Source: Alphaproteobacteria bacterium (GTDB lineage: Bacteria > Pseudomonadota > Alphaproteobacteria > UBA9219). From it: a DNA stretch of 32,139 bases. Positions within the stretch are counted from its first letter, which is position 1, and each line of letters starts with the position of its first letter. The stretch is taken from NCBI GenBank assembly GCA_009779135.1, contig WREW01000013.1:1-32139 (forward strand), written 5' to 3'. The translations under genes and the position numbers were made by a program. The notes under the pieces were generated by a model. That model was given only the letters and a program-made list of their open reading frames with translations, had not been told where the DNA came from and ran no database searches. Shown here in pieces: positions 11,886 to 26,768 of the stretch.

Positions 11886-11986
11886 TGTCATTGCGAGGAA
11901 AGCCGCCACAGGCGGCTTGACGCGGCAATCTCTGCAGACATCGCCGAGATTGCTTCGTTGGGCCTTGCGGCCGCCTCGCAATGACA
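11886..11986. repeat. Type B intergenic repeat, copy 2
   Basis: The ends are TGTCATTGCGAGGAAAGCCG and CCGCCTCGCAATGACA. The left hairpin is AGCCGCC-ACA-GGCGGCT, the central stem pairs GCAATCTC with GAGATTGC, and the right hairpin is GGCC-TTGC-GGCC. A run of six C residues precedes it. It lies just after the kinase stop. Confidence 0.82.
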
Positions 11987-12118: not shown

Positions 12119-14140
12119 ATGTCTGCCGCCCCTCTGTCGCTTACATTGATCGAATCGCCGGAAATTGAAGACGGCGTTGTGCATCTTGATAACGCCGATC
12201 AGCGTGCTTTAACCGTTGTGGAAGGGGATATTATAAGAGTGGACGGCGCGCGCTCGGCCTATTTGAAAATCCGTCCGGCTCTGGTCGGCGACCACAACCA
12301 GCGAATCGCAAAAGTCAGCCTGCTTACGGCCCATAATCTCGGCCTGCAAAGCGGCCAGAGCCTTCAGCTTTATCATGAGCATGTCGCACCGCCTTATGCC
12401 GAGCGCATCACACTTGCCGCGCTTGATGATATTGACCGGATTCACATTCTGGCGCGTATCAAGGCGCTGGCCTCTTTCTGCCATGGCCGCGTTGTGGATA
12501 GCGATGATTCCATACGCATTCCCGCGCTGGGCCGTTTTCCTCTTTTAGCCAAGGTGAAAGCGGTTCAGCCGCAGGGCCCCGTGCAAATCACGCGGAGCAC
12601 AAGCTTTGTCGTCGAAACAGGCCTTAATCTGAGCGAAACCCTCCTCCTCGGCGGGATGCGGGATGCGTATAAGACCTGCGCCATGCTGGTTGAAAAGGGC
12701 CTCAAGAAAAAAGACCCTCATATAAGGCGCCGGATTTTGCTTTGCGGCCCCTCGGGCCTTGGAAAAGCAAGGCTGACCGCGCGCTTGGCGCAGGATTTTG
12801 AAGTTCAGCATCATGTCATCGACTGCTTGCAGATCCTTGAGCACGCGCAGGAGGGGAAGGAGTCAAAACTCAGCACGCTTTTGGTGGATCTGAGCCGTCT
12901 GGGCCCGACCCTTTTGGTTTTGGATCACATGCAAGCGCTTTCCGCGCGGCAGGATGTGAGCGCGGGCATGCTGCGCGCCCGCCTGCAGGTGAATAATTTG
13001 CTTGAAGAGGTATGGTCTTATCCGAATGTGATGGTTTTCGGCATTACATCGGACTCTTTCGAGGAGCTTGCGCAAGATGACCATATCGCGCCGGAGCTTT
13101 TCGACTTTATCCTGCCCATCGATAATTTAACGCGGTGGGAGCGGCTGGAGGTTCTCAACATCGCCGCGCGTAAGATTGAGCTTGCCAAAGACGTCGATCT
13201 TTCCCTGATTGCAGCCCTTATGCCCGGGGCAAGCGCGCGGGATCTGACCAAACTGGTGCGCAGCGCGGCGGATTTGTCGTTCGGCCCACGGGTAACGGCT
13301 TTGGATTTGCGGGAAGCCATGCGCTCCTGTCCGGTGCCTTCATCGCCCGCTATCATGTGTGACGTTCCTGACGTAAACTGGAACGATGTAGCGGGGCTTG
13401 AGGATATCAAGCATTTAATGCTCGAAACCTTGAACTGGTCGCTTTTCCAGAACGACAAGTTTATGGCCGCCGGAGTCAAACCGCCGCGCTCGGTCTTGAT
13501 GTCGGGCGGCGTAGGGACGGGCAAAACCACGCTGGCGCGCGCGCTTGCAAGCCGCATGGCCGCAAACTTTATTGAAATATCCTGCCCGCTTTTACACGCG
13601 CAGCATGGGCGGTCTGGCGCTTGTTATCTTCAAAAAGCCTTCGCTCTGGCGCGGCGCAAACCGCCTTGCATTATTTTTCTGGATGATATGGATGCGCTTT
13701 TTGAAGTCCTGTTTACGCCCGAGCTGGTGGAGCCGCCGGAACAACCCGTTGCCACACAGCTGATTGCCGAGCTTGACGCGCTCAGCGCTTTGACAGGCGT
13801 TGTGGTGATTGCGGCCACCAACAGGCCTGATCGTTTAACGCCCGAGATTCTGCGTCCCGGGCGGTTTGACTATGCCTTGACTCTTCCGATGCCGGACAAA
13901 AGCGCGCGCAAAAAGATTTTAAACATCCATGCGCGTAAACTTCTTTTGGAAGCGGATGTTGATTTCGACAGGCTAGCGCAAAACACGCAAGGCATGTCAG
14001 GCGCCGAGATTTCGGGCCTGTGCAACCGCGTCGGCATGATGGCCCTGCGCCGCACCTTGGCGGAGAATGCGGGGCCCGGCACCATGCCCGTCGTTACAGC
14101 CGACCTTTTCGATCAGGCCTTGCGAGGACGCAAGGGATAA
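12119..14140 (+). CDS. CDC48/VCP-like tandem AAA ATPase with degenerate D1
   Basis: The 673-residue protein has the CDC48/VAT layout: an N-terminal double-psi-barrel-like domain (about 1-90, with VVEGDIIRVDG and AYLKIRPAL), a linker domain to about 165, D1 (about 170-400) and D2 (about 415-670). D2 is a recognisable AAA module: Walker A GGVGTGKT (463-470), Walker B IIFLDD (518-523, second acidic residue Asp rather than Glu), sensor-1 ATNRPD and arginine fingers in RPGRFD (578-583). D1 is degenerate: Walker A GPSGLGKA (210-217) lacks the Ser/Thr, Walker B ends DH (269-270), and no RPGRFD-like finger is seen. The usual aromatic pore-loop residues are missing in both rings (D2 reads HAQHG where Cdc48 has an aromatic pair before Gly). 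The family unfolds or extracts proteins with ATP; here D1 is probably structural, and threading activity is doubtful. The substrate is unknown. Confidence 0.85.
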   Translation: MSAAPLSLTLIESPEIEDGVVHLDNADQRALTVVEGDIIRVDGARSAYLKIRPALVGDHNQRIAKVSLLTAHNLGLQSGQSLQLYHEHVAPPYAERITLAALDDIDRIHILARIKALASFCHGRVVDSDDSIRIPALGRFPLLAKVKAVQPQGPVQITRSTSFVVETGLNLSETLLLGGMRDAYKTCAMLVEKGLKKKDPHIRRRILLCGPSGLGKARLTARLAQDFEVQHHVIDCLQILEHAQEGKESKLSTLLVDLSRLGPTLLVLDHMQALSARQDVSAGMLRARLQVNNLLEEVWSYPNVMVFGITSDSFEELAQDDHIAPELFDFILPIDNLTRWERLEVLNIAARKIELAKDVDLSLIAALMPGASARDLTKLVRSAADLSFGPRVTALDLREAMRSCPVPSSPAIMCDVPDVNWNDVAGLEDIKHLMLETLNWSLFQNDKFMAAGVKPPRSVLMSGGVGTGKTTLARALASRMAANFIEISCPLLHAQHGRSGACYLQKAFALARRKPPCIIFLDDMDALFEVLFTPELVEPPEQPVATQLIAELDALSALTGVVVIAATNRPDRLTPEILRPGRFDYALTLPMPDKSARKKILNIHARKLLLEADVDFDRLAQNTQGMSGAEISGLCNRVGMMALRRTLAENAGPGTMPVVTADLFDQALRGRKG

Positions 14141-14250: not shown

Positions 14251-15063
14251 ATGCGTATCAAAATATTTCTTGGTTTTTTGCTGTGTTTTTCAATCATGGC
14301 CACAGCTCCGGTTTTTGCCAATATAGCCATCACCCCGTTTTTTATTGATTTTGACGCGGCGTCCAACAAACGTGTCGTAAGCGTCAGGCTGACGAACACG
14401 ACTGATACAAAACAAACCTACCGCGCCCATTTTATCAATTACCGGCAAAACCCCGACGGCTCGCTGGTGGAGCTTACGAAGGACCAGGAAGATCCCGCCG
14501 CGCCCTTTGCCGATACATATCTGACGGTTTCGCCGCGCCAGTTTTCTATTGGCCCGGGCATTATGCAGACCGTCAATGTTGGCCGCAAACCGATGCCGAG
14601 CGCGCCGGACGGCGAATATGTCTCTTATTTGATGGTGCGGGAAATCACGCCGCCAACGCCGATAGAGCAGACAGAAGCCTCCGATCAGGAATTCGGCGTC
14701 AATATCAAAGCACTCTACGCCGCCGCCATACCCGTGCTTCTTGTCAAGGGGCAGGTGACTGCGGCCACAGCCATAGCCGGCGTTGAAAGTGCCGGTACCT
14801 CAACAAAAGACAACAACGCCCTTATTGCGGTGACGCTTGAGCGGAAAGGAACGCGCTCTTCCTATGGCAGCATTCAGATTATGGACGGCCGCAATGTCGT
14901 GGGCGAGATAAAAAACCTCCGTGTTCTTCTGACAACGAAAACACGGCGGGTTGTCATCCAGCTTAAAAAACCGGAAAGCGAGCTGAAAGGCCGGGCTTTA
15001 AAAGTCGTCTTCAAAGATGGTCGCACAGGAGAAACAATTACTGAGGAGAAAGCGGTTTTCTAA
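14251..15063 (+). CDS. Periplasmic pilus-assembly chaperone, PapD-like
   Basis: The 270-residue protein has a signal peptide (MRIKIFLGFLLCFSIMATAPVFA). Two immunoglobulin-like domains follow: the first has IAITPFFIDFD, RVVSVRLTNTTDTKQTYRAHF and LTVSPRQFSIGPGIMQTVNVGRK, corresponding to the F-G strand region that donates a strand to pilins; the second begins near IPVLLVKG. In the chaperone-usher pathway such proteins fold and cap pilin subunits in the periplasm and deliver them to the usher. The low similarity I can see to PapD/FimC, and the pairing with DUF4402 proteins, suggests a divergent branch. It is followed directly by the usher gene, whose start overlaps this gene's end. The stop is TAA at 15061. 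Confidence 0.82.
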   Translation: MRIKIFLGFLLCFSIMATAPVFANIAITPFFIDFDAASNKRVVSVRLTNTTDTKQTYRAHFINYRQNPDGSLVELTKDQEDPAAPFADTYLTVSPRQFSIGPGIMQTVNVGRKPMPSAPDGEYVSYLMVREITPPTPIEQTEASDQEFGVNIKALYAAAIPVLLVKGQVTAATAIAGVESAGTSTKDNNALIAVTLERKGTRSSYGSIQIMDGRNVVGEIKNLRVLLTTKTRRVVIQLKKPESELKGRALKVVFKDGRTGETITEEKAVF

Positions 15064-18000
15064 ATGGCTTTACCGAAACTTCGGTATTTTTCTGTTTCTG
15101 GGACTGCTTCTGGCGGTGAATTATGCCAGAGCAACGGAAAAAGAGTCCGAAGCGGGGCCTGAAGGAGAATACTTAATCCTTGAACCTTCAATCCAAAAGC
15201 ACAGGATGGAAGAGTATCTCTATGCGTGGTCGGAACATGACAGGATTTTCATTCCCATCCTGCAGCTTTCCCAGCTTGTAGGCTTTAAGCTTGAGGAAAA
15301 AGAAAAGCTCCAAGGCTATTTTCTATCGGAACAGCGGAAGTTTGAAATTGATTTCAAAAAAATGACGGCCCTTGCGGCGGACGGCAAAAGCTTTAGCTTT
15401 ACCCGCAAAGACGTCATCGAACAGGACGGCCATGTTTATTTCACGCCGGAGTTTTATGCGCAGCTTCTTCCCATCAAAATCACCGTTAATTCCATAGATC
15501 TGGTTTTGTTTGTCGAAGCGGAAGAAAAACTGCCCCCCACCATCCGCCTTGAAAAGGAAAAACGGCAGAGGAAAGGAACCGTAGATCGCCAAAAAGATTC
15601 ATTTAGGGATTATGAGTTTGACAACCGCTGGTTCACAAAGCCCGTTGTGGATTTGCGCTATGCCAAAGGTTTCGGCAAAACGAATATAGGCCGTTCGAAT
15701 GAAACGACAAGCAACTTTGACAGTTATGCTGTGAATGTCGGCATGCTTGCGGCGGCGCTGGACACCCAGCTTTATGTGTTCGGCAACACGATGATTAATG
15801 ACGCCGCGCCCCGCATGAGGCTGACCATGGGCCGCACATTTTTGGAGGAGCCGAAAAACCCTCTTAATCTGACGCAGTTTGCCATCGGCGACATTCGCGG
15901 ATTTGGAACGACCTTTTTTACGCAAACCGGCAGCGGCCGAGGCTTTTACGCAAGTTCGTTCAAAGACCTTGTCATGGCGGCGGACAAAACCATCGATATT
16001 ACAGGCCCCCTTGCCACCGGCTGGGAGGTTGAGCTTTACGATCACGGCGCACTTATCGGCTTCCGCCAGACGTCAACAACAGGCAGGTATGAGTTTTTGA
16101 GCGTGCCCGTTTCCTTCGGTCAAAACACGTTCAGCCTCGTTTTCTACGGCCCCTATGGCGAGACCTATACGGAAGACCGCCAGTATTACGCCGGCACATC
16201 CCCTGTAAAAACCGGCGAGTTCGGCTACCAGACCAATCTCTACCAGCAAGATCGTTATTTGATTGAAGATAATGAACCCTTGGTTTCAAACACGAACATC
16301 CCCGTCTTTAACGCAACAGGCTATTACGGCATTACGGATAATATTTCCGCTATTTTCGGCTATGAATCCACGCCTGATGCGGAAAATAATCGTGTGAACA
16401 GACAATTTGCGACAGTAGGCTCCCAGTTCGTTTTCTCCGGCGCGTCGCTTCAGTATAATTTTCTCTATGATCTGGAATCCGGCAAAACCGGCCATAATTT
16501 CGAAGCGCAGGGCGATGTCCGTATAGGCGATCTTTTTGCCCGCTATGTCATGTATAATGATCTGCGCGCGCCTTCATCCTATCGCGGCGAATATTTGACG
16601 TCTTTTTTTGAAGGCCGATTTTCCAGCAATCTCCCTTGGGTCAACATGCCTTATTATGTCAGCTATCAGCATGGAAAGCTGGAATCAGGGGACAGCACGG
16701 ATTCTGTAACAGCAAGACTTTCTTCGACCGTCTGGCAGAACTACCACTTCACGCTTGAAAACCGCTATGAACGCCTGCTGTGGAACGAAACCAACGACGT
16801 TTCCGTCCTGTTTCAAACCCAGTTCGGCCGGCTCGGCACGCGCGGAAAAATCAGATACCGCACTTTGCCGGAGTCAGAGCTGAACAATATAGGGCTAAGA
16901 GCAGACTATCGCTGGGACAGGCACACCTATTTTACGGCCACATGGGACTGGGATTTTGTGAAAAACCAGCGCGACGTGAATCGCTTTTCCGTCAGCGGCG
17001 CTAGGATTTTCCCGTTCGGCGGTCTGACGCTGCAAGCTGCCGCAGACACGAACAGGAATATTTCGGTTGTTTTGGGCTATAATATAGGCTTCGGCCACAC
17101 CGAAAAAGGCCTCTTCGCTGACGCCACGAATATGCTGAGCGAGCGCGCAACCATCTCAGCCTTTGTCGAAGATGAACACGGCAATCCCATCCCTGACGTT
17201 ATGGTTATGGTCAATGGCGCGCACACAAAAGCCGTGACGGACGAACGTGGCGAAGCGATTATCACGGACATAGAGCCTTACCAGAAATCCATCGTCACCA
17301 TAGATAAGGAAACAGTCGGCGATGTCGTGCTGCAGCCTGTTTTGGATGAACAAAAACTGGTGCTTCGCCCGGGTGTCGTGACGGAAGTGCGTATCCCCTT
17401 TGTTCATAAAGGCGCTATTGAAGGACAGCTTACCCAAAATATAGAAAAACCCCGCCTTATGGGCTACACGGTCAAGGCCCAGAATAAGGATGGCGACACA
17501 ATCTTGGAAACCCATACAGACGCGGATGGATTATTTATTTTGGACTCGCTTGATTTCGGCACCTATGACCTGAAAATTACCAGAGGGATGCAGGAAGTAA
17601 AAACGGTAGAAAATATCGTCCTCGATGATTTCGTCCACAGCGTGAACCCCTCGATTGAGATCCCATCCAAGTTTGCCTTCCGCTCTTATCTTAACCCCGA
17701 GGAGGGCGAGGACAGCGAAGAGAATATTGCCATAGCCTCCGCAGAAGAGCCGCAGGACGAACTAAAATCCGCCGCTGTTGCCACCCCTTATTTTAACCCC
17801 GAGGAAACCGACACGCCGCCCAAAGATGAAACTGTCCTGACCGCCATGGAAGAGCCGCAGGATGAGCCGGAAGTGGAAAGCAATATTGTGCTGACAGCTG
17901 AAAACGTAGCCGCGCTGAAAGAAGTGCCCATCATAGACCTGCGTAAAAAACTTAAAACAACCATCATCGTCCCCGTAACCGTGGAAAAAGAAGAGGGGGG

Positions 18001-18127
18001 TACCGAGGAGCTTGAAGTCACCCTCATCATCCCCTTGCCGACCGAAGCAGAAATAAACACTGCGCGGAAGTCGCCTTCCGCGCAGTGGCATCAAGATCAA
18101 AGCCGTAGGCTTAGTTACAGATATTAG
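15017..18127 (+). CDS. Outer-membrane usher-like protein with C-terminal extension
   Basis: The 1036-residue outer-membrane protein has a late signal peptide (KRFSKWLYRN, then FGIFLFLGLLLAVNYARA). Residues about 48-175 form an N-terminal domain that I cannot match to the FimD-type usher N domain. Beta-barrel sequence runs from about 207 to 705, interrupted by an usher middle/plug domain near 327-395 (WEVELYDHGALIG, GRYEFLSVPVSFGQN, LVFYGPYGE). Two Ig-like, carboxypeptidase-regulatory-type units follow (ISAFVEDEHGNPIPDVMV near 713; GAIEGQL near 798). An acidic segment has a roughly 34-residue imperfect repeat (890-960), then a last segment to 1036. Its expected role is the pore that assembles and secretes fibre subunits. 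The start is uncertain: ATG 15017 overlaps the chaperone by 47 bases and has a poor ribosome site; a later non-ATG start (CTG 15041, GGAG upstream) would keep the signal peptide. Confidence 0.8.
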   Translation: MVAQEKQLLRRKRFSKWLYRNFGIFLFLGLLLAVNYARATEKESEAGPEGEYLILEPSIQKHRMEEYLYAWSEHDRIFIPILQLSQLVGFKLEEKEKLQGYFLSEQRKFEIDFKKMTALAADGKSFSFTRKDVIEQDGHVYFTPEFYAQLLPIKITVNSIDLVLFVEAEEKLPPTIRLEKEKRQRKGTVDRQKDSFRDYEFDNRWFTKPVVDLRYAKGFGKTNIGRSNETTSNFDSYAVNVGMLAAALDTQLYVFGNTMINDAAPRMRLTMGRTFLEEPKNPLNLTQFAIGDIRGFGTTFFTQTGSGRGFYASSFKDLVMAADKTIDITGPLATGWEVELYDHGALIGFRQTSTTGRYEFLSVPVSFGQNTFSLVFYGPYGETYTEDRQYYAGTSPVKTGEFGYQTNLYQQDRYLIEDNEPLVSNTNIPVFNATGYYGITDNISAIFGYESTPDAENNRVNRQFATVGSQFVFSGASLQYNFLYDLESGKTGHNFEAQGDVRIGDLFARYVMYNDLRAPSSYRGEYLTSFFEGRFSSNLPWVNMPYYVSYQHGKLESGDSTDSVTARLSSTVWQNYHFTLENRYERLLWNETNDVSVLFQTQFGRLGTRGKIRYRTLPESELNNIGLRADYRWDRHTYFTATWDWDFVKNQRDVNRFSVSGARIFPFGGLTLQAAADTNRNISVVLGYNIGFGHTEKGLFADATNMLSERATISAFVEDEHGNPIPDVMVMVNGAHTKAVTDERGEAIITDIEPYQKSIVTIDKETVGDVVLQPVLDEQKLVLRPGVVTEVRIPFVHKGAIEGQLTQNIEKPRLMGYTVKAQNKDGDTILETHTDADGLFILDSLDFGTYDLKITRGMQEVKTVENIVLDDFVHSVNPSIEIPSKFAFRSYLNPEEGEDSEENIAIASAEEPQDELKSAAVATPYFNPEETDTPPKDETVLTAMEEPQDEPEVESNIVLTAENVAALKEVPIIDLRKKLKTTIIVPVTVEKEEGGTEELEVTLIIPLPTEAEINTARKSPSAQWHQDQSRRLSYRY
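18058..18087 (-). terminator. Rho-independent terminator for the DUF4402 pilin-like gene
   Basis: A perfect 13-bp stem (CACTGCGCGGAAG / CTTCCGCGCAGTG) has a 4-base loop. Read on the minus strand, it is followed by TTTATTT and lies 36 bases beyond the pilin-like stop. On the plus strand it sits inside the 3' coding end of the usher, with no T-run. Confidence 0.75.
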
Positions 18128-18639
18128 GTACCATAGACAACAGCCACAGTGTAGGTGCCGCTATAGGCCCCCACTTCCTGACTGTTGTTGATGTTCAGCT
18201 GAGCGCCGACCTTAAATGTGGCTTCACCTATACCACTAAGTGCCGGTGTAGCGCCTGCATCATGGTTAAAGGCCGTGGCCGTCATGGTTTCTGTGGGGCC
18301 TTGCAGGGTGACAGCCGAAGACGGCAGTGTTATGACAATAGACGCAAGGTTCGTTCCGACAACTTTGAACTCACCAGGTACCTGTGTACCAGCATAGTGG
18401 CGTGCAACCGCCGTACCGGTAATAACGCCGGCAGGACTCATGATGATTGTTCCGGCAGCGACATCTGTTGTAATTTTACCAAAGTCCATTTGGGTTTCTT
18501 CGGTCAATGTCAGCGTAGCCACGATCTCAGCTTTGACAACGGCATCATCTACGATTTCAGCGCGCAGAGCTGTCGAAGAAGCTGACAGGGCAAAAGCTGA
18601 CACAGCAGCTAATCCCAGTATTTTGCTCATATTAGACAT
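18124..18639 (-). CDS. DUF4402 pilin-like secreted protein (single domain)
   Basis: The 171-residue exported protein has a signal peptide MSNMSKILGLAAVSAFALS..ALRA. The mature part has DUF4402 features: a first strand ATLTLTEETQMDFGKI, then an all-beta domain ending in GTYTVAVVYGT, a pattern like the last strand of fimbrial subunits with a penultimate aromatic. DUF4402 proteins are small beta-rich secreted proteins of unknown function; next to a chaperone and usher it is inferred to be the main fibre subunit. It has no Cys. The ATG at 18639 has AAAGGA 8 bases upstream and starts the signal peptide, so the longer reading was rejected. It is convergent with the usher, the stops overlapping by 4 bases, and ends at the terminator within the usher gene. 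Confidence 0.82.
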   Translation of the reverse strand: MSNMSKILGLAAVSAFALSASSTALRAEIVDDAVVKAEIVATLTLTEETQMDFGKITTDVAAGTIIMSPAGVITGTAVARHYAGTQVPGEFKVVGTNLASIVITLPSSAVTLQGPTETMTATAFNHDAGATPALSGIGEATFKVGAQLNINNSQEVGAYSGTYTVAVVYGT

Positions 18640-18818
18640 GTTGTATTCCTTTCTAGAAGGGGGTCTTATCAGTGCACACAACCACAAAGTGAATTGCGAA
18701 TCACTGAACACCCCGACAGATTAAGGGAGAAAGGTTAATACATCGCTAAGTATGCGAAACTTTTATATTTTGTTTGGTTAAGAGAATATTAATACTCTTG
18801 TATATAATAAATCGCCCG
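18640..18818 (-). promoter_or_regulatory. AT-rich leader between the two DUF4402 genes
   Basis: This 179-base gap has no gene. It is clearly more AT-rich than its surroundings near 18760-18820, as expected for a promoter of the downstream pilin-like gene, but I could not pick one -35/-10 pair with confidence. It also holds a 16-base near-palindrome GTGAATTGCGAATCAC (18689-18704) and an AT-rich partial inverted repeat near 18780-18800. Confidence 0.4.
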
Positions 18819-19739
18819 CTAATAATTTACCGCGATCACATAATGCCCCAGATAATGCCCTGCGGGCTGGTTTGCGCTAACGACAAGATCACCCCCCACA
18901 TTGATGTCCAGATAGCCGTTGGAAGCAATAACGGGATTAGAGGTGGAAGGGTATCTGGTCAGATTTTCCGCCATCATGGTAGCGCCGCCATCAGAATGAT
19001 AAATCGTTACGGTAGCGGGAAGAGATATAGTTATAGCCGAATTGGCAATACCCGTAACCCTGAATTGCCCCTGACCGGATGTGCCATTGTCCAGATTGAC
19101 CGAGCCATCGACAAGGGTGCGCAAGCCCGTAGCAGGATTGATCCTGACACGCCCCCCCATACCGGCCACAAGCTGCATTCTTCCGAAATCCAAGGGGGAA
19201 AGCTCTTCCGCACTCAGACGCGGCAGAATGATAAGGCTGATGGGAATATTGAGCGAAGCCGTCAAATTGCCGCGTTTGATATTCAGCCCGACAAAGCCGC
19301 TATATGTCCCCGGAAGGAGTCCGGAAGTAATAGTTGCCGTCCCGCCGATAGAGTTTTCAAGCTGCGCGATACCCCCCACGGGGTTCGGGGTCTCTTTGGC
19401 GTTAAATAAAGCAATATTTGTGATGTTAAGGGTTCCGCCGTTCGACCCCTGCAGCGTAACCGAAGTGTTGGCAAGCGTATATTGTATCTGCCCGTTGGTG
19501 ACGTTTGTTGTGACGAGTATGATCCCGCAAGAACCGACAACAAAGGGCTGTACGGACGAATTGGATTGCCCCGTGGTAGAAATCGTCACCGTAGCCGAAG
19601 CGCCAGTTCCCGTATAGATAAAGGTACCAAAATTAAGCGGCTGCAAAACCTCGGCATTCATATAATTCTGCGCCTGAGCCTCCGCAGGCGAAAAAATCAG
19701 GACAAGGAGCGCGCCTATAAAAAGCAACCAACGCCGCAT
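18819..19739 (-). CDS. DUF4402 secreted protein with two tandem domains
   Basis: The 306-residue exported protein has signal peptide MRRWLLFIGALLVLIFSPAEAQA. It contains two DUF4402-like units: the first starts near VLQPLNFGTF and runs to about residue 165 (GTYSGFVGLNIKR); the second starts at ELSPLDFGRM and ends at YVIAVNY. The repeated LxPLxFGxx opening and the Gly/aromatic-rich last strand show the duplication. It has only one Cys in the mature part. Inferred role: a two-domain fibre component, possibly tip or adaptor, made with the single-domain protein encoded 179 bases downstream. The start has GGGGAG just upstream (spacing short). Two-domain proteins at the tip are known in classical pili, but nothing here shows ligand binding. 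Confidence 0.78.
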   Translation of the reverse strand: MRRWLLFIGALLVLIFSPAEAQAQNYMNAEVLQPLNFGTFIYTGTGASATVTISTTGQSNSSVQPFVVGSCGIILVTTNVTNGQIQYTLANTSVTLQGSNGGTLNITNIALFNAKETPNPVGGIAQLENSIGGTATITSGLLPGTYSGFVGLNIKRGNLTASLNIPISLIILPRLSAEELSPLDFGRMQLVAGMGGRVRINPATGLRTLVDGSVNLDNGTSGQGQFRVTGIANSAITISLPATVTIYHSDGGATMMAENLTRYPSTSNPVIASNGYLDINVGGDLVVSANQPAGHYLGHYVIAVNY

Positions 19740-19814
19740 CCACTCCCCCTTGCCGTTAACACACGCCCGTAAACAATCTTACCCCGTTTACGAGAACATG
19801 CAACCCCCCCCACC

Positions 19815-19919
19815 TTGTCATTGCGAGGAAAGCCGCCGCAGGCGGCTTGACGCGGCAATCTCGTTCCCGATATCGCCGAGATTGTCACGTCAGCCCTTAC
19901 GGCCTTCCTCGCAATGACA
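19815..19919. repeat. Type B intergenic repeat, copy 3
   Basis: The ends are TTGTCATTGCGAGGAAAGCCG and GGCCTTCCTCGCAATGACA. The left hairpin is AGCCGCC-GCA-GGCGGCT, the central stem pairs GGCAATCTC with GAGATTG, and the right arm contains CCCTTACGG. A C-rich tract precedes it. With the next repeat it fills the 242-base gap between the two-domain DUF4402 gene and the endonuclease gene. Confidence 0.82.
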
Positions 19920-19930
19920 TGTTTTTTTAA

Positions 19931-19981: not shown

Positions 19982-20875
19982 TCAGCCCTTCCAGAGGGTG
20001 AGGTCAATAGATTGTGCTATCCTCTTATAAACGCGCTTTCTTTTTGAAGCTTTGGGATCAAGCTTATAAACACCAATAAACCTGTATGCTTTGCGCCCTA
20101 ATATATCCGTGCTTTTAGCAAAAGTAATGCGCGGCCGCATTCTACTTGTTTTATCGAGGCTGAGCATCTTTTCCGGATCGTCATTTTTTTCAAAGATATT
20201 CTCCCAATCTTCTGACAATGTATTGACCCATCCTCTTGCCACAGATCGAGGTTTCCCATCAGCATCAGCAACCGCGAGTTTCGGACACCATAACTGGCAT
20301 CCTTGCCCGATATAAAAATAAGCTTGTTGCATGCGCTTGGGATTTCTTCCAAAACAGCGACATATGTCCACAATTTTTCCAAATGCAAGCCTGTCCTTAA
20401 TATGGATACACCCTTTTTTTAGAGCGACCTTATAAGGATCTTCATCGAAGTTCCAAGCAGGCGGATTTTTTCGCTGGATTTTATTTTTGATGGCCTTTAC
20501 GACATCATTAATTTTCTTCTCGATATGTTCTATACCCTTATAAGCTTCTATTCTGTAAAGTTTAAAATCCTTGGTTTCATCATAAACCGAAAGCATTTCT
20601 TCCATCGTAAGCGTGCGGTCTAAATCTTTCTCCGCGTTTTTAGTGTGATGAAACTCATCACATTCAACACCGATGCCAAGCTGCGGAAAATATAAATCCA
20701 CAAGGGCGTATTTTCCATCTGATCTTTTTATGAATTGCTGTGTGACAGGCTGAATATCGCTTCGATCAAGTTTGTGCCAAATCGCGTTCAGAATATAATT
20801 CTCATAGTCTTTCCGCTTCGTGCGAGAAAATGTCCTAACCAAATATTCACGCTTCGCATCATCGACTTTCGCCAT
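19982..20875 (-). CDS. Probable modified-cytosine-dependent endonuclease, PvuRts1I/AbaSI-like
   Basis: The 297-residue protein is the usual length for PvuRts1I-type enzymes, which cut DNA containing 5-hydroxymethyl- or glucosylhydroxymethylcytosine. The N-terminal half looks like their Vsr/PD-(D/E)XK-like nuclease: YENYILNAIWHKL (24-36), PVTQQFIKRSDGKYALVDLYFPQ (43-65, Asp60), and GIGVECDEFHH (67-77) with acidic and His residues suited to metal-dependent cleavage. The C-terminal half (about 150-297), with AYRFIGVYKLD near the end, fits the SRA-like base-flipping reader. Recognition is from memory of the family, without a search. It starts 13 bases after the rpoD stop with a strong GAGGGG ribosome site, so it is likely transcribed with dnaG-rpoD. 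Its base composition is visibly more AT-rich than its neighbours, suggesting transfer. Likely role: defence against phages with modified cytosines. Confidence 0.72.
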   Translation of the reverse strand: MAKVDDAKREYLVRTFSRTKRKDYENYILNAIWHKLDRSDIQPVTQQFIKRSDGKYALVDLYFPQLGIGVECDEFHHTKNAEKDLDRTLTMEEMLSVYDETKDFKLYRIEAYKGIEHIEKKINDVVKAIKNKIQRKNPPAWNFDEDPYKVALKKGCIHIKDRLAFGKIVDICRCFGRNPKRMQQAYFYIGQGCQLWCPKLAVADADGKPRSVARGWVNTLSEDWENIFEKNDDPEKMLSLDKTSRMRPRITFAKSTDILGRKAYRFIGVYKLDPKASKRKRVYKRIAQSIDLTLWKG

Positions 20876-26639: not shown

Positions 26640-26652
26640 TCGCTCCCCCCAC

Positions 26653-26768
26653 TTGTCATTGGCAGGAAAGCCGCCGCAGGCGGCTTGACGCGGCAATCTC
26701 GGCGATGTTGCAGAGATTGCCACGTCAACCCTAAAGGCCCCCCTCGCGGGGGAGAGCCTGCGTGGGGG
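26653..26768. repeat. Hybrid repeat: type B left part joined to type C palindrome
   Basis: The left end TTGTCATTGGCAGGAAAGCCGCC, hairpin AGCCGCC-GCA-GGCGGCT and central GGCAATCTC...GAGATTGCC match type B. The expected right end (TCGCAATGACA) is absent; instead AAAGGCCCCCCTCGCGGGGGAGAGCC, a type C palindrome, follows from about 26737. It fills the gap between the lipoprotein and yqeY and abuts the yqeY stop. A C-tract precedes it. Confidence 0.75.

What the first reader, a model, noticed from the sequence alone, without database searches (positions are those of the whole stretch)
14251..19739. Chaperone-usher fibre locus built around DUF4402 proteins, with subunits on the opposite strand
A PapD-like chaperone and a large usher (plus) converge on two DUF4402 genes (minus), and the usher and pilin stops overlap by 4 bases. 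Classical loci put subunit, chaperone and usher in one operon. DUF4402 has no assigned function; its last-strand pattern and location argue that it is a pilin class assembled by this pair. The convergent layout lets subunits and assembly machine be controlled separately and could give antisense interference at the overlap.
Basis: partly seen in the sequence, partly recalled or inferred. Interest (0 to 1): 0.62.

Follow-up and report, generated by a model that had tools for sequence, protein, structure and literature searches.

The report
Unrecognised pilus system using DUF4402 subunits
Four genes encode a complete bacterial pilus factory in which a protein family of unknown function (DUF4402) supplies the building blocks, and the same kit occurs in many bacteria where databases do not yet name the pore protein or the subunits as pilus parts.

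Summary
The locus is real and is a chaperone-usher (CU) pilus system. It has a PapD-like chaperone, a very divergent usher, a one-domain DUF4402 pilin and a two-domain DUF4402 protein, most likely the tip adhesin. DUF4402 is shown here to be a CU pilin family by three lines of evidence. It sits beside this usher in 76 of 81 loci from several phyla (four of the other five are cut by a contig end). Its predicted fold matches only CU pilins in the first 33 Foldseek ranks. Its profile aligns full length with the archaic pilin family SCPU. The usher escapes Pfam's Usher model and RefSeq calls its relatives 'carboxypeptidase regulatory-like', but its model matches FimD (E 1.8e-30). In a tree DUF4402-linked ushers form one clade apart from classical, SCPU-linked and EcpC ushers. 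One-domain subunits carry an alternating N-terminal donor strand; two-domain ones lack it. The convergent layout is not general: 61 of 81 loci are ordinary pilin-chaperone-usher operons, and the window's layout is derived, shared only with one close relative. The 4-base overlap is not conserved; a terminator hairpin at the junction is. Antisense control has no support. Verdict: pilin reading supported, regulatory reading not; a new variant of a known kind.

The parts
14251..15063 (+). Periplasmic PapD-like pilus chaperone, 270 aa with signal peptide
   Evidence: 16 of 25 family members match PapD_N; profile matches FimC/CupB2/CfaA chaperones weakly; adjacent to usher in nearly all relatives. 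Invariant superfamily Pro (P95) kept; the GEYR arginine of non-classical chaperones is V here
15017..18127 (+). Outer-membrane usher, 1036 aa: N-terminal domain, beta barrel, plug, two C-terminal beta domains, disordered tail
   Evidence: AF2 model pLDDT 74.6 matches FimD 3rfz E 1.8e-30, PapC; first 18 hits all ushers; profile hits FimD CTD; no Pfam Usher hit alone
15989..16147 (+). Inferred plug segment of the usher (residues about 325-377), most conserved part (GRYEF..VP...G.N.F..VFYGPQGE)
   Evidence: alignments A1, A5; position by analogy with FimD/PapC, inference
17114..17662 (+). C-terminal domains of the usher, scored by Pfam as CarboxypepD_reg/SdrD_B
   Evidence: profile aligns to FimD residues 683-745
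17699..18127 (+). Low-complexity disordered usher tail (pLDDT mostly below 45); its last part reads through the pilin terminator
18124..18639 (-). Major pilin: one-domain DUF4402, 171-aa precursor (ATG 18639; longest ORF starts at GTG 18711)
   Evidence: Pfam E 5.2e-26; AF2 pLDDT 94; Foldseek ranks 1-33 all CU pilins
18505..18561 (-). N-terminal extension of the mature pilin (AEIVDDAVVKAEIVATLTL), predicted donor strand
   Evidence: alternating hydrophobic pattern in 105 relatives; structural alignments start at about residue 14
18819..19739 (-). Two-domain DUF4402 protein, 306 aa, predicted tip adhesin without a donor strand
   Evidence: two DUF4402 stretches; short N-terminus shared with two-domain relatives
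18048..18087 (-). Rho-independent terminator of the pilin operon: perfect 13-bp stem, 4-nt loop, T-rich tail, lying inside the usher 3' end
   Evidence: equivalent hairpin in L086 with compensatory changes
18124..18127 (.). 4-nt overlap of the usher and pilin stop codons; not conserved in L086

Best explanation
The locus encodes a minimal chaperone-usher pilus. The chaperone (14251) binds DUF4402 subunits in the periplasm and completes their unfinished immunoglobulin-like fold (inferred). The usher (15017) recruits chaperone-subunit complexes, and the N-terminal donor strand of each incoming pilin replaces the chaperone strand in the previous subunit, so that a fibre grows out through the pore (inferred from homology). 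The one-domain DUF4402 protein (18124-18639) is the polymerising rod subunit. The two-domain DUF4402 protein (18819-19739) lacks a donor strand and therefore can only be the first, tip subunit; its N-terminal domain probably binds a surface. Shown here: homology, fold, linkage, donor-strand pattern and its absence in two-domain members. The chaperone, usher and pilins belong to a family distinct from the sampled classical, SCPU-linked (archaic) and EcpC (alternative) systems. The convergent gene order is a lineage-specific rearrangement; a terminator ends pilin transcripts just inside the usher gene.
For: Linkage: 76 of 81 usher loci from Alpha-, Beta- and Gammaproteobacteria, Desulfobacteraceae, Nitrospinaceae, Holophagaceae and Elusimicrobiota carry a DUF4402 pilin beside the chaperone and usher; four of the other five are truncated by contig ends. 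50 of 50 representative pilins match Pfam DUF4402. In 385 genomes of the class, 11 of 14 DUF4402 genomes hold this usher versus 11 of 371 others (Fisher p 4e-13); SCPU, the archaic pilin, is not linked to it. Fold: pilin model pLDDT 94, Foldseek ranks 1-33 all CU pilins; usher model matches FimD E 1.8e-30. Profile-profile DUF4402 to SCPU: probability 90%, E 1.7e-6, against 0.3% and 0.2% for reversed and chaperone controls. Donor strand: alternating A-A-A-I pattern before the FG motif; distance from signal-peptide core to FG is 33 residues (median) in 104 one-domain and 18 in 16 two-domain proteins. Usher clade monophyletic, support 0.954.
Against: No experiment shows fibres. Pilin Foldseek E-values are modest (best 3.5e-3) and VIA Z is 7.2, in the range where common arrangements also score, so fold alone would not settle it. 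The window chaperone lacks the arginine that anchors subunits in non-classical systems (V instead), so its binding mode is not the documented one. Some DUF4402 genes lie away from ushers (several in G312, one each in G175, G191 and G358), and L102 shows no pilin within 1.6 kb upstream of its chaperone.
Confidence: 0.93

Rival explanations
1. The convergent layout is a regulatory device: usher and pilin transcripts overlap and interfere, so assembly machine and subunits are controlled separately.
For: Opposite strands and a 4-nt overlap are real; the layout is kept in L086 at about 75% usher identity. Separate promoters are implied by the layout.
Against: Rare among relatives (window and L086; one more pilin convergent to an usher in Micavibrio L113). 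The overlap is absent in L086. A conserved hairpin terminator lies 37-66 nt past the pilin stop, limiting antisense reach into the usher. No RNA data.
Confidence: 0.1
2. These are ordinary archaic (sigma) chaperone-usher pili, with DUF4402 merely a divergent part of SCPU.
For: DUF4402 and SCPU profiles align full length; DUF4402-usher profile finds SCPU-linked ushers at E 4e-6; many chaperones share the GEYR motif that aligns with CfaA YR.
Against: SCPU and DUF4402-type ushers occur in different genomes, with one genome (G191) holding both over threshold; the usher tree separates them; ushers fail Pfam Usher in 22 of 24 cases, best 1.9e-6.
Confidence: 0.25
3. The large protein is a carboxypeptidase-regulatory-domain outer-membrane protein unrelated to ushers, and DUF4402 a secreted matrix protein that happens to lie nearby.
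For: Single-sequence Pfam gives only CarboxypepD_reg and similar domains; RefSeq uses that name for relatives.
Against: First 18 structural hits are all FimD/PapC; profile links to FimD and to PF00577-positive ushers; a chaperone sits next to it in nearly all loci.
Confidence: 0.02

Closest known systems
Archaic (sigma) chaperone-usher pili, e.g. Csu of Acinetobacter baumannii (PMC4654587, PMC9452303)
   Same: Homologous pilin fold, alternating N-terminal donor strand, two-domain tip adhesin, PapD-like chaperone, usher; wider family chaperones keep GEYR, aligned with the CfaA YR motif (the published Arg89/Arg90 position, inferred)
   Different: Pilins are DUF4402 not SCPU; ushers form their own clade and are missed by Pfam Usher; the window's clade of chaperones has V in place of that Arg; usher C-terminal domains score as CarboxypepD_reg/SdrD_B
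Classical chaperone-usher pili (type 1/Fim, P/Pap)
   Same: Usher architecture (model matches FimD, PapC), pilin fold, donor-strand logic, chaperone superfamily
   Different: Very low sequence identity (about 10-14% in structural alignments); no separate adaptor subunits in the window; tip protein is a tandem DUF4402
DUF4402 (Pfam PF14352)
   Same: Both minus-strand genes are members (E 5.2e-26, 1.8e-31)
   Different: Pfam gives no function; here assigned as chaperone-usher pilin/adhesin

Membership tests
Chaperone-usher pathway (general) | Usher: barrel with plug, N- and C-terminal domains | tested here: met
   AF2 model and Foldseek to FimD/PapC, E 1.8e-30
Chaperone-usher pathway (general) | PapD-like two-domain chaperone with the invariant proline | tested here: met
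   PapD_N in 16 of 25 members; P95 invariant in A4 and aligned with a proline of CfaA; no own structure predicted
Chaperone-usher pathway (general) | Subunits with CU-pilin fold | tested here: met
   Pilin model and Foldseek ranks 1-33; SCPU profile match
Chaperone-usher pathway (general) | N-terminal donor strand with alternating hydrophobic residues on polymerising subunits | tested here: met
Chaperone-usher pathway (general) | Donor-strand complementation and exchange, fibre on cell surface | not testable with these tools
   needs biochemistry and microscopy
Archaic (sigma) CU clade | Pilins of the SCPU family | tested here: not met
   All 50 representatives score as DUF4402 and SCPU is not among their Pfam matches; own genome has no SCPU
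Archaic (sigma) CU clade | Usher groups with SCPU-linked ushers | tested here: not met
   separate clade, support 0.954; beta and kappa clades not sampled
Archaic/alternative chaperones | Super-conserved Arg in strand F of domain 1 (CsuC Arg89) | tested here: not met
   window chaperone has V (GEYV), as do 21 clade relatives; 51 of 78 chaperones in the wider family have R. Position equated through the CfaA alignment, E 0.35
Pfam Usher PF00577 | Score above curated cut-off | tested here: not met
   no hit for window usher; none in own genome; 2 of 24 relatives at E 0.1 or better
DUF4402 PF14352 | Score above curated cut-off | tested here: met
   92.2 and 109.9 bits against 25.2

The most novel reading that the evidence does not exclude
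DUF4402 pilins with their cognate chaperones and 'carboxypeptidase-regulatory' ushers form an unclassified major clade of the chaperone-usher pathway, beside the six published ones, spread over several phyla; and within its gut-bacterial branch the chaperone has replaced the arginine that anchors the subunit C-terminus in non-classical systems, implying a different capture mechanism.
Probability: 0.6. Interest if true: 0.66.

Novelty: new variant of a known kind. Interest (0 to 1): 0.56.

Why it matters
It gives a function to a family of unknown function and to an outer-membrane protein that annotation pipelines label by an irrelevant domain, so a whole class of pili in environmental, marine and gut bacteria is currently invisible in genome surveys. 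It also offers a minimal two-subunit pilus for studying donor-strand exchange, and a chaperone branch without the expected anchor residue. The convergent layout itself is a local curiosity.

Tried and rejected
Literature: no paper in the library mentions DUF4402, PF14352 or IPR025514; further searches found nothing linking this usher type to pili. Absence there is not proof of novelty, since most subscription papers are missing. Single-sequence searches of the PDB failed for chaperone and usher; profiles were needed. PDB sequence search with the pilin profile gave no meaningful hit. Antisense control at the overlap: considered and set aside because the overlap is not conserved. A sigma-70-like promoter on the minus strand between adhesin and pilin was not found by the scan, whose total count is close to shuffled expectation. 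The first automatic signal-peptide cleavage guess was too noisy and was replaced by the distance from the hydrophobic core. Composition gave no sign of recent foreign origin (GC 0.50-0.52 versus 0.54). The first genome scan with a 12-sequence usher alignment had no usable stretch. Rfam and tRNA scans of the window were empty.
Full report
OBSERVATION. The four genes are at the stated coordinates and strands. DUF4402 is beyond doubt in both minus-strand genes, and the stop codons of usher and pilin overlap by 4 nt. The chaperone and the usher are not recognised by Pfam when taken singly: the usher shows only CarboxypepD_reg-type domains, the chaperone only a weak similarity to TcfA. The pilin most probably starts at ATG 18639 behind AAGGAA, giving a 171-residue precursor.

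OWN GENOME AND CLOSE RELATIVES. The window is one contig of a 1.55-Mb, 40-contig genome whose only DUF4402 genes are these. In the 24 genomes of its family, the seven with DUF4402 all have this usher, and an eighth (G006) has the usher at a contig end. G003 has the same-strand order pilin-pilin-chaperone-usher-pilin, and G013 has pilin-pilin-chaperone-usher on one strand with one more pilin divergent from it. Only G004, a metagenome-assembled genome whose contig was also fetched as L086, shares the convergent layout, with 76-80% identical chaperone and usher.

BROAD LINKAGE. In 385 genomes drawn from the class, 14 carry DUF4402 over the Pfam cut-off and 22 carry this usher with more than 350 bits; 11 carry both (Fisher p 4e-13). 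The archaic pilin SCPU, run on the same genomes, is over its cut-off in 26, of which one (G191) holds this usher, so the pairing is specific. Several usher-bearing genomes without a Pfam hit have pilins below Pfam's threshold that the iterated profile finds. A scan of 84,980 species genomes gave 80 named loci: ruminant-gut and other gut Alphaproteobacteria, Rhodospirillales, Kiloniella, Sphingomonadales, Massilia, Vibrio splendidus, Rheinheimera, Bowmanella, Desulfobacteraceae, Nitrospinaceae, Holophagaceae and Elusimicrobiota. With the window that makes 81 loci; 76 have a DUF4402 pilin beside chaperone and usher. Four of the remaining five are cut by contig ends; L102 is the one possible exception. 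Fifty representative pilins from these loci all match Pfam DUF4402. Sixteen of 25 chaperones match PapD_N. Two of 24 ushers reach Pfam Usher at E 0.1 or better, the best at 1.9e-6.

STRUCTURE AND REMOTE HOMOLOGY. The mature pilin was modelled with a 50-sequence alignment (pLDDT 94). Foldseek ranks 1-33 in the PDB are all chaperone-usher pilins (CfaB, Caf1, CsuA/B, FimG, PapA and others; best E 3.5e-3). VIA-align gives Z up to 7.2 to FimG and 7.1 to the Csu pilus subunit, with most alignments starting at about residue 14 of the model; these Z-values alone would not be decisive. By profile-profile alignment DUF4402 matches SCPU over its length (probability 90%, E 1.7e-6), while reversed SCPU and the chaperone give 0.3% and 0.2%. 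The usher model (pLDDT 74.6, disordered tail from about residue 895) matches FimD at E 1.8e-30, and the first 18 hits are all ushers. An usher family profile also reaches the FimD C-terminal domain by sequence (E 0.003).

MECHANISM. In CsuA/B an alternating hydrophilic-hydrophobic N-terminus was the mark of its donor strand (PMC4654587). The DUF4402 pilins show the same: counted back from the conserved FG motif in 105 proteins, positions -24, -22, -18, -16 and -14 are mainly A, A, A, A and I/V, with polar residues between. Two-domain DUF4402 proteins lack this stretch: the distance from the signal-peptide core to the first FG is 18 residues (median of 16) against 33 in one-domain proteins (median of 104; p 1.4e-7, not corrected for relatedness). 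A subunit without a donor strand can only sit at the tip. [quoted passage not shown] So I read 18124-18639 as the rod subunit and 18819-19739 as the tip adhesin. Assembly by donor-strand exchange at the usher is inferred, not shown.

PLACEMENT. A tree of 49 ushers separates the DUF4402-linked ones (support 0.954, with the DUF4402-linked G301 ushers L058/L059 outside them as neighbours) from SCPU-linked archaic ushers, PF00577-positive relatives, E. coli FimD, HtrE, YraJ, and EcpC. At this divergence, midpoint-rooted and without beta or kappa members, it supports a distinct clade but does not prove a seventh one. The chaperones of the wider family keep a GEYR motif whose arginine aligns with CfaA's YR. 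The literature calls an arginine in this strand the hallmark that anchors the subunit C-terminus in non-classical chaperones (PMC4654587). The window and 21 related chaperones have V there, so the anchor must differ in this branch; the equivalence of positions rests on a weak alignment.

LAYOUT. The usher tree puts the window and L086 inside a gut clade in which most loci are same-strand operons. The convergent order is therefore derived. Both carry a perfect hairpin beyond the pilin stop (13-bp stem in the window at 18058-18087, 11-bp in L086, same loop size, with compensated stem changes and a T-rich tail on the minus strand). No shuffled 6.1-kb sequence of 200 held such a stem. This is a good intrinsic terminator for the pilin transcript. 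In L086 the usher stops just before it. In the window the corresponding TAA is still visible but out of frame, and the usher runs on through the hairpin to overlap the pilin stop. The overlap thus looks like a by-product of change in a disordered tail. Nothing supports antisense control.

ANNOTATION STATUS. On annotated plasmids the same operon appears as 'DUF4402 domain-containing protein', 'molecular chaperone' or 'fimbria/pilus periplasmic chaperone', and 'carboxypeptidase regulatory-like domain-containing protein'. No paper in the library names DUF4402. The system is visible in genomes but, as far as these tools show, not described.

Noticed in passing
window 11886-11986, 19812-19925, 26652-26747: A palindromic repeat of about 105 bp present in about 40 copies in the window's genome; one copy lies between the adhesin gene and the restriction gene, upstream of the pilin operon.
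   Followed up: partly
window 19982-20875 (-): PvuRts1I-like modification-dependent endonuclease with SRA domain (Pfam E 9.7e-37 and 3.8e-33) directly beyond the pilus locus.
   Followed up: no
window 12119-14140 (+): CDC48/p97-like protein with two AAA modules and weak CDC48 N-domain matches, just upstream of the chaperone; unusual for a small alphaproteobacterium. Not present beside the locus in L038/L086.
   Followed up: no
L187 1906-9509 (Polaromonas sp. JS666 plasmid 2): The DUF4402 chaperone-usher operon lies between two IS6-family transposase genes on a plasmid typed as conjugative, suggesting it can move as a unit.
   Followed up: no
L094, L104 (Elusimicrobiota): Ushers from Elusimicrobiota fall inside the gut alphaproteobacterial branch of the usher tree, suggesting transfer between gut bacteria.
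   Followed up: no
L039 7866-12470, L040 7383-11684: Ushers of 1433-1534 aa whose extra N-terminal part resembles a second copy of the N-terminal domain and plug-like segment.
   Followed up: no
window 15017-15063 and relatives L086-L107: Chaperone and usher reading frames overlap by exactly 47 nt in the window, L086 and many gut relatives at 36-40% usher identity, a sign of translational coupling.
   Followed up: partly
G312 loci L049-L056, L084: A 0.9-Mb genome with at least ten DUF4402 genes on many contigs, most without a nearby usher although the genome has two.
   Followed up: no
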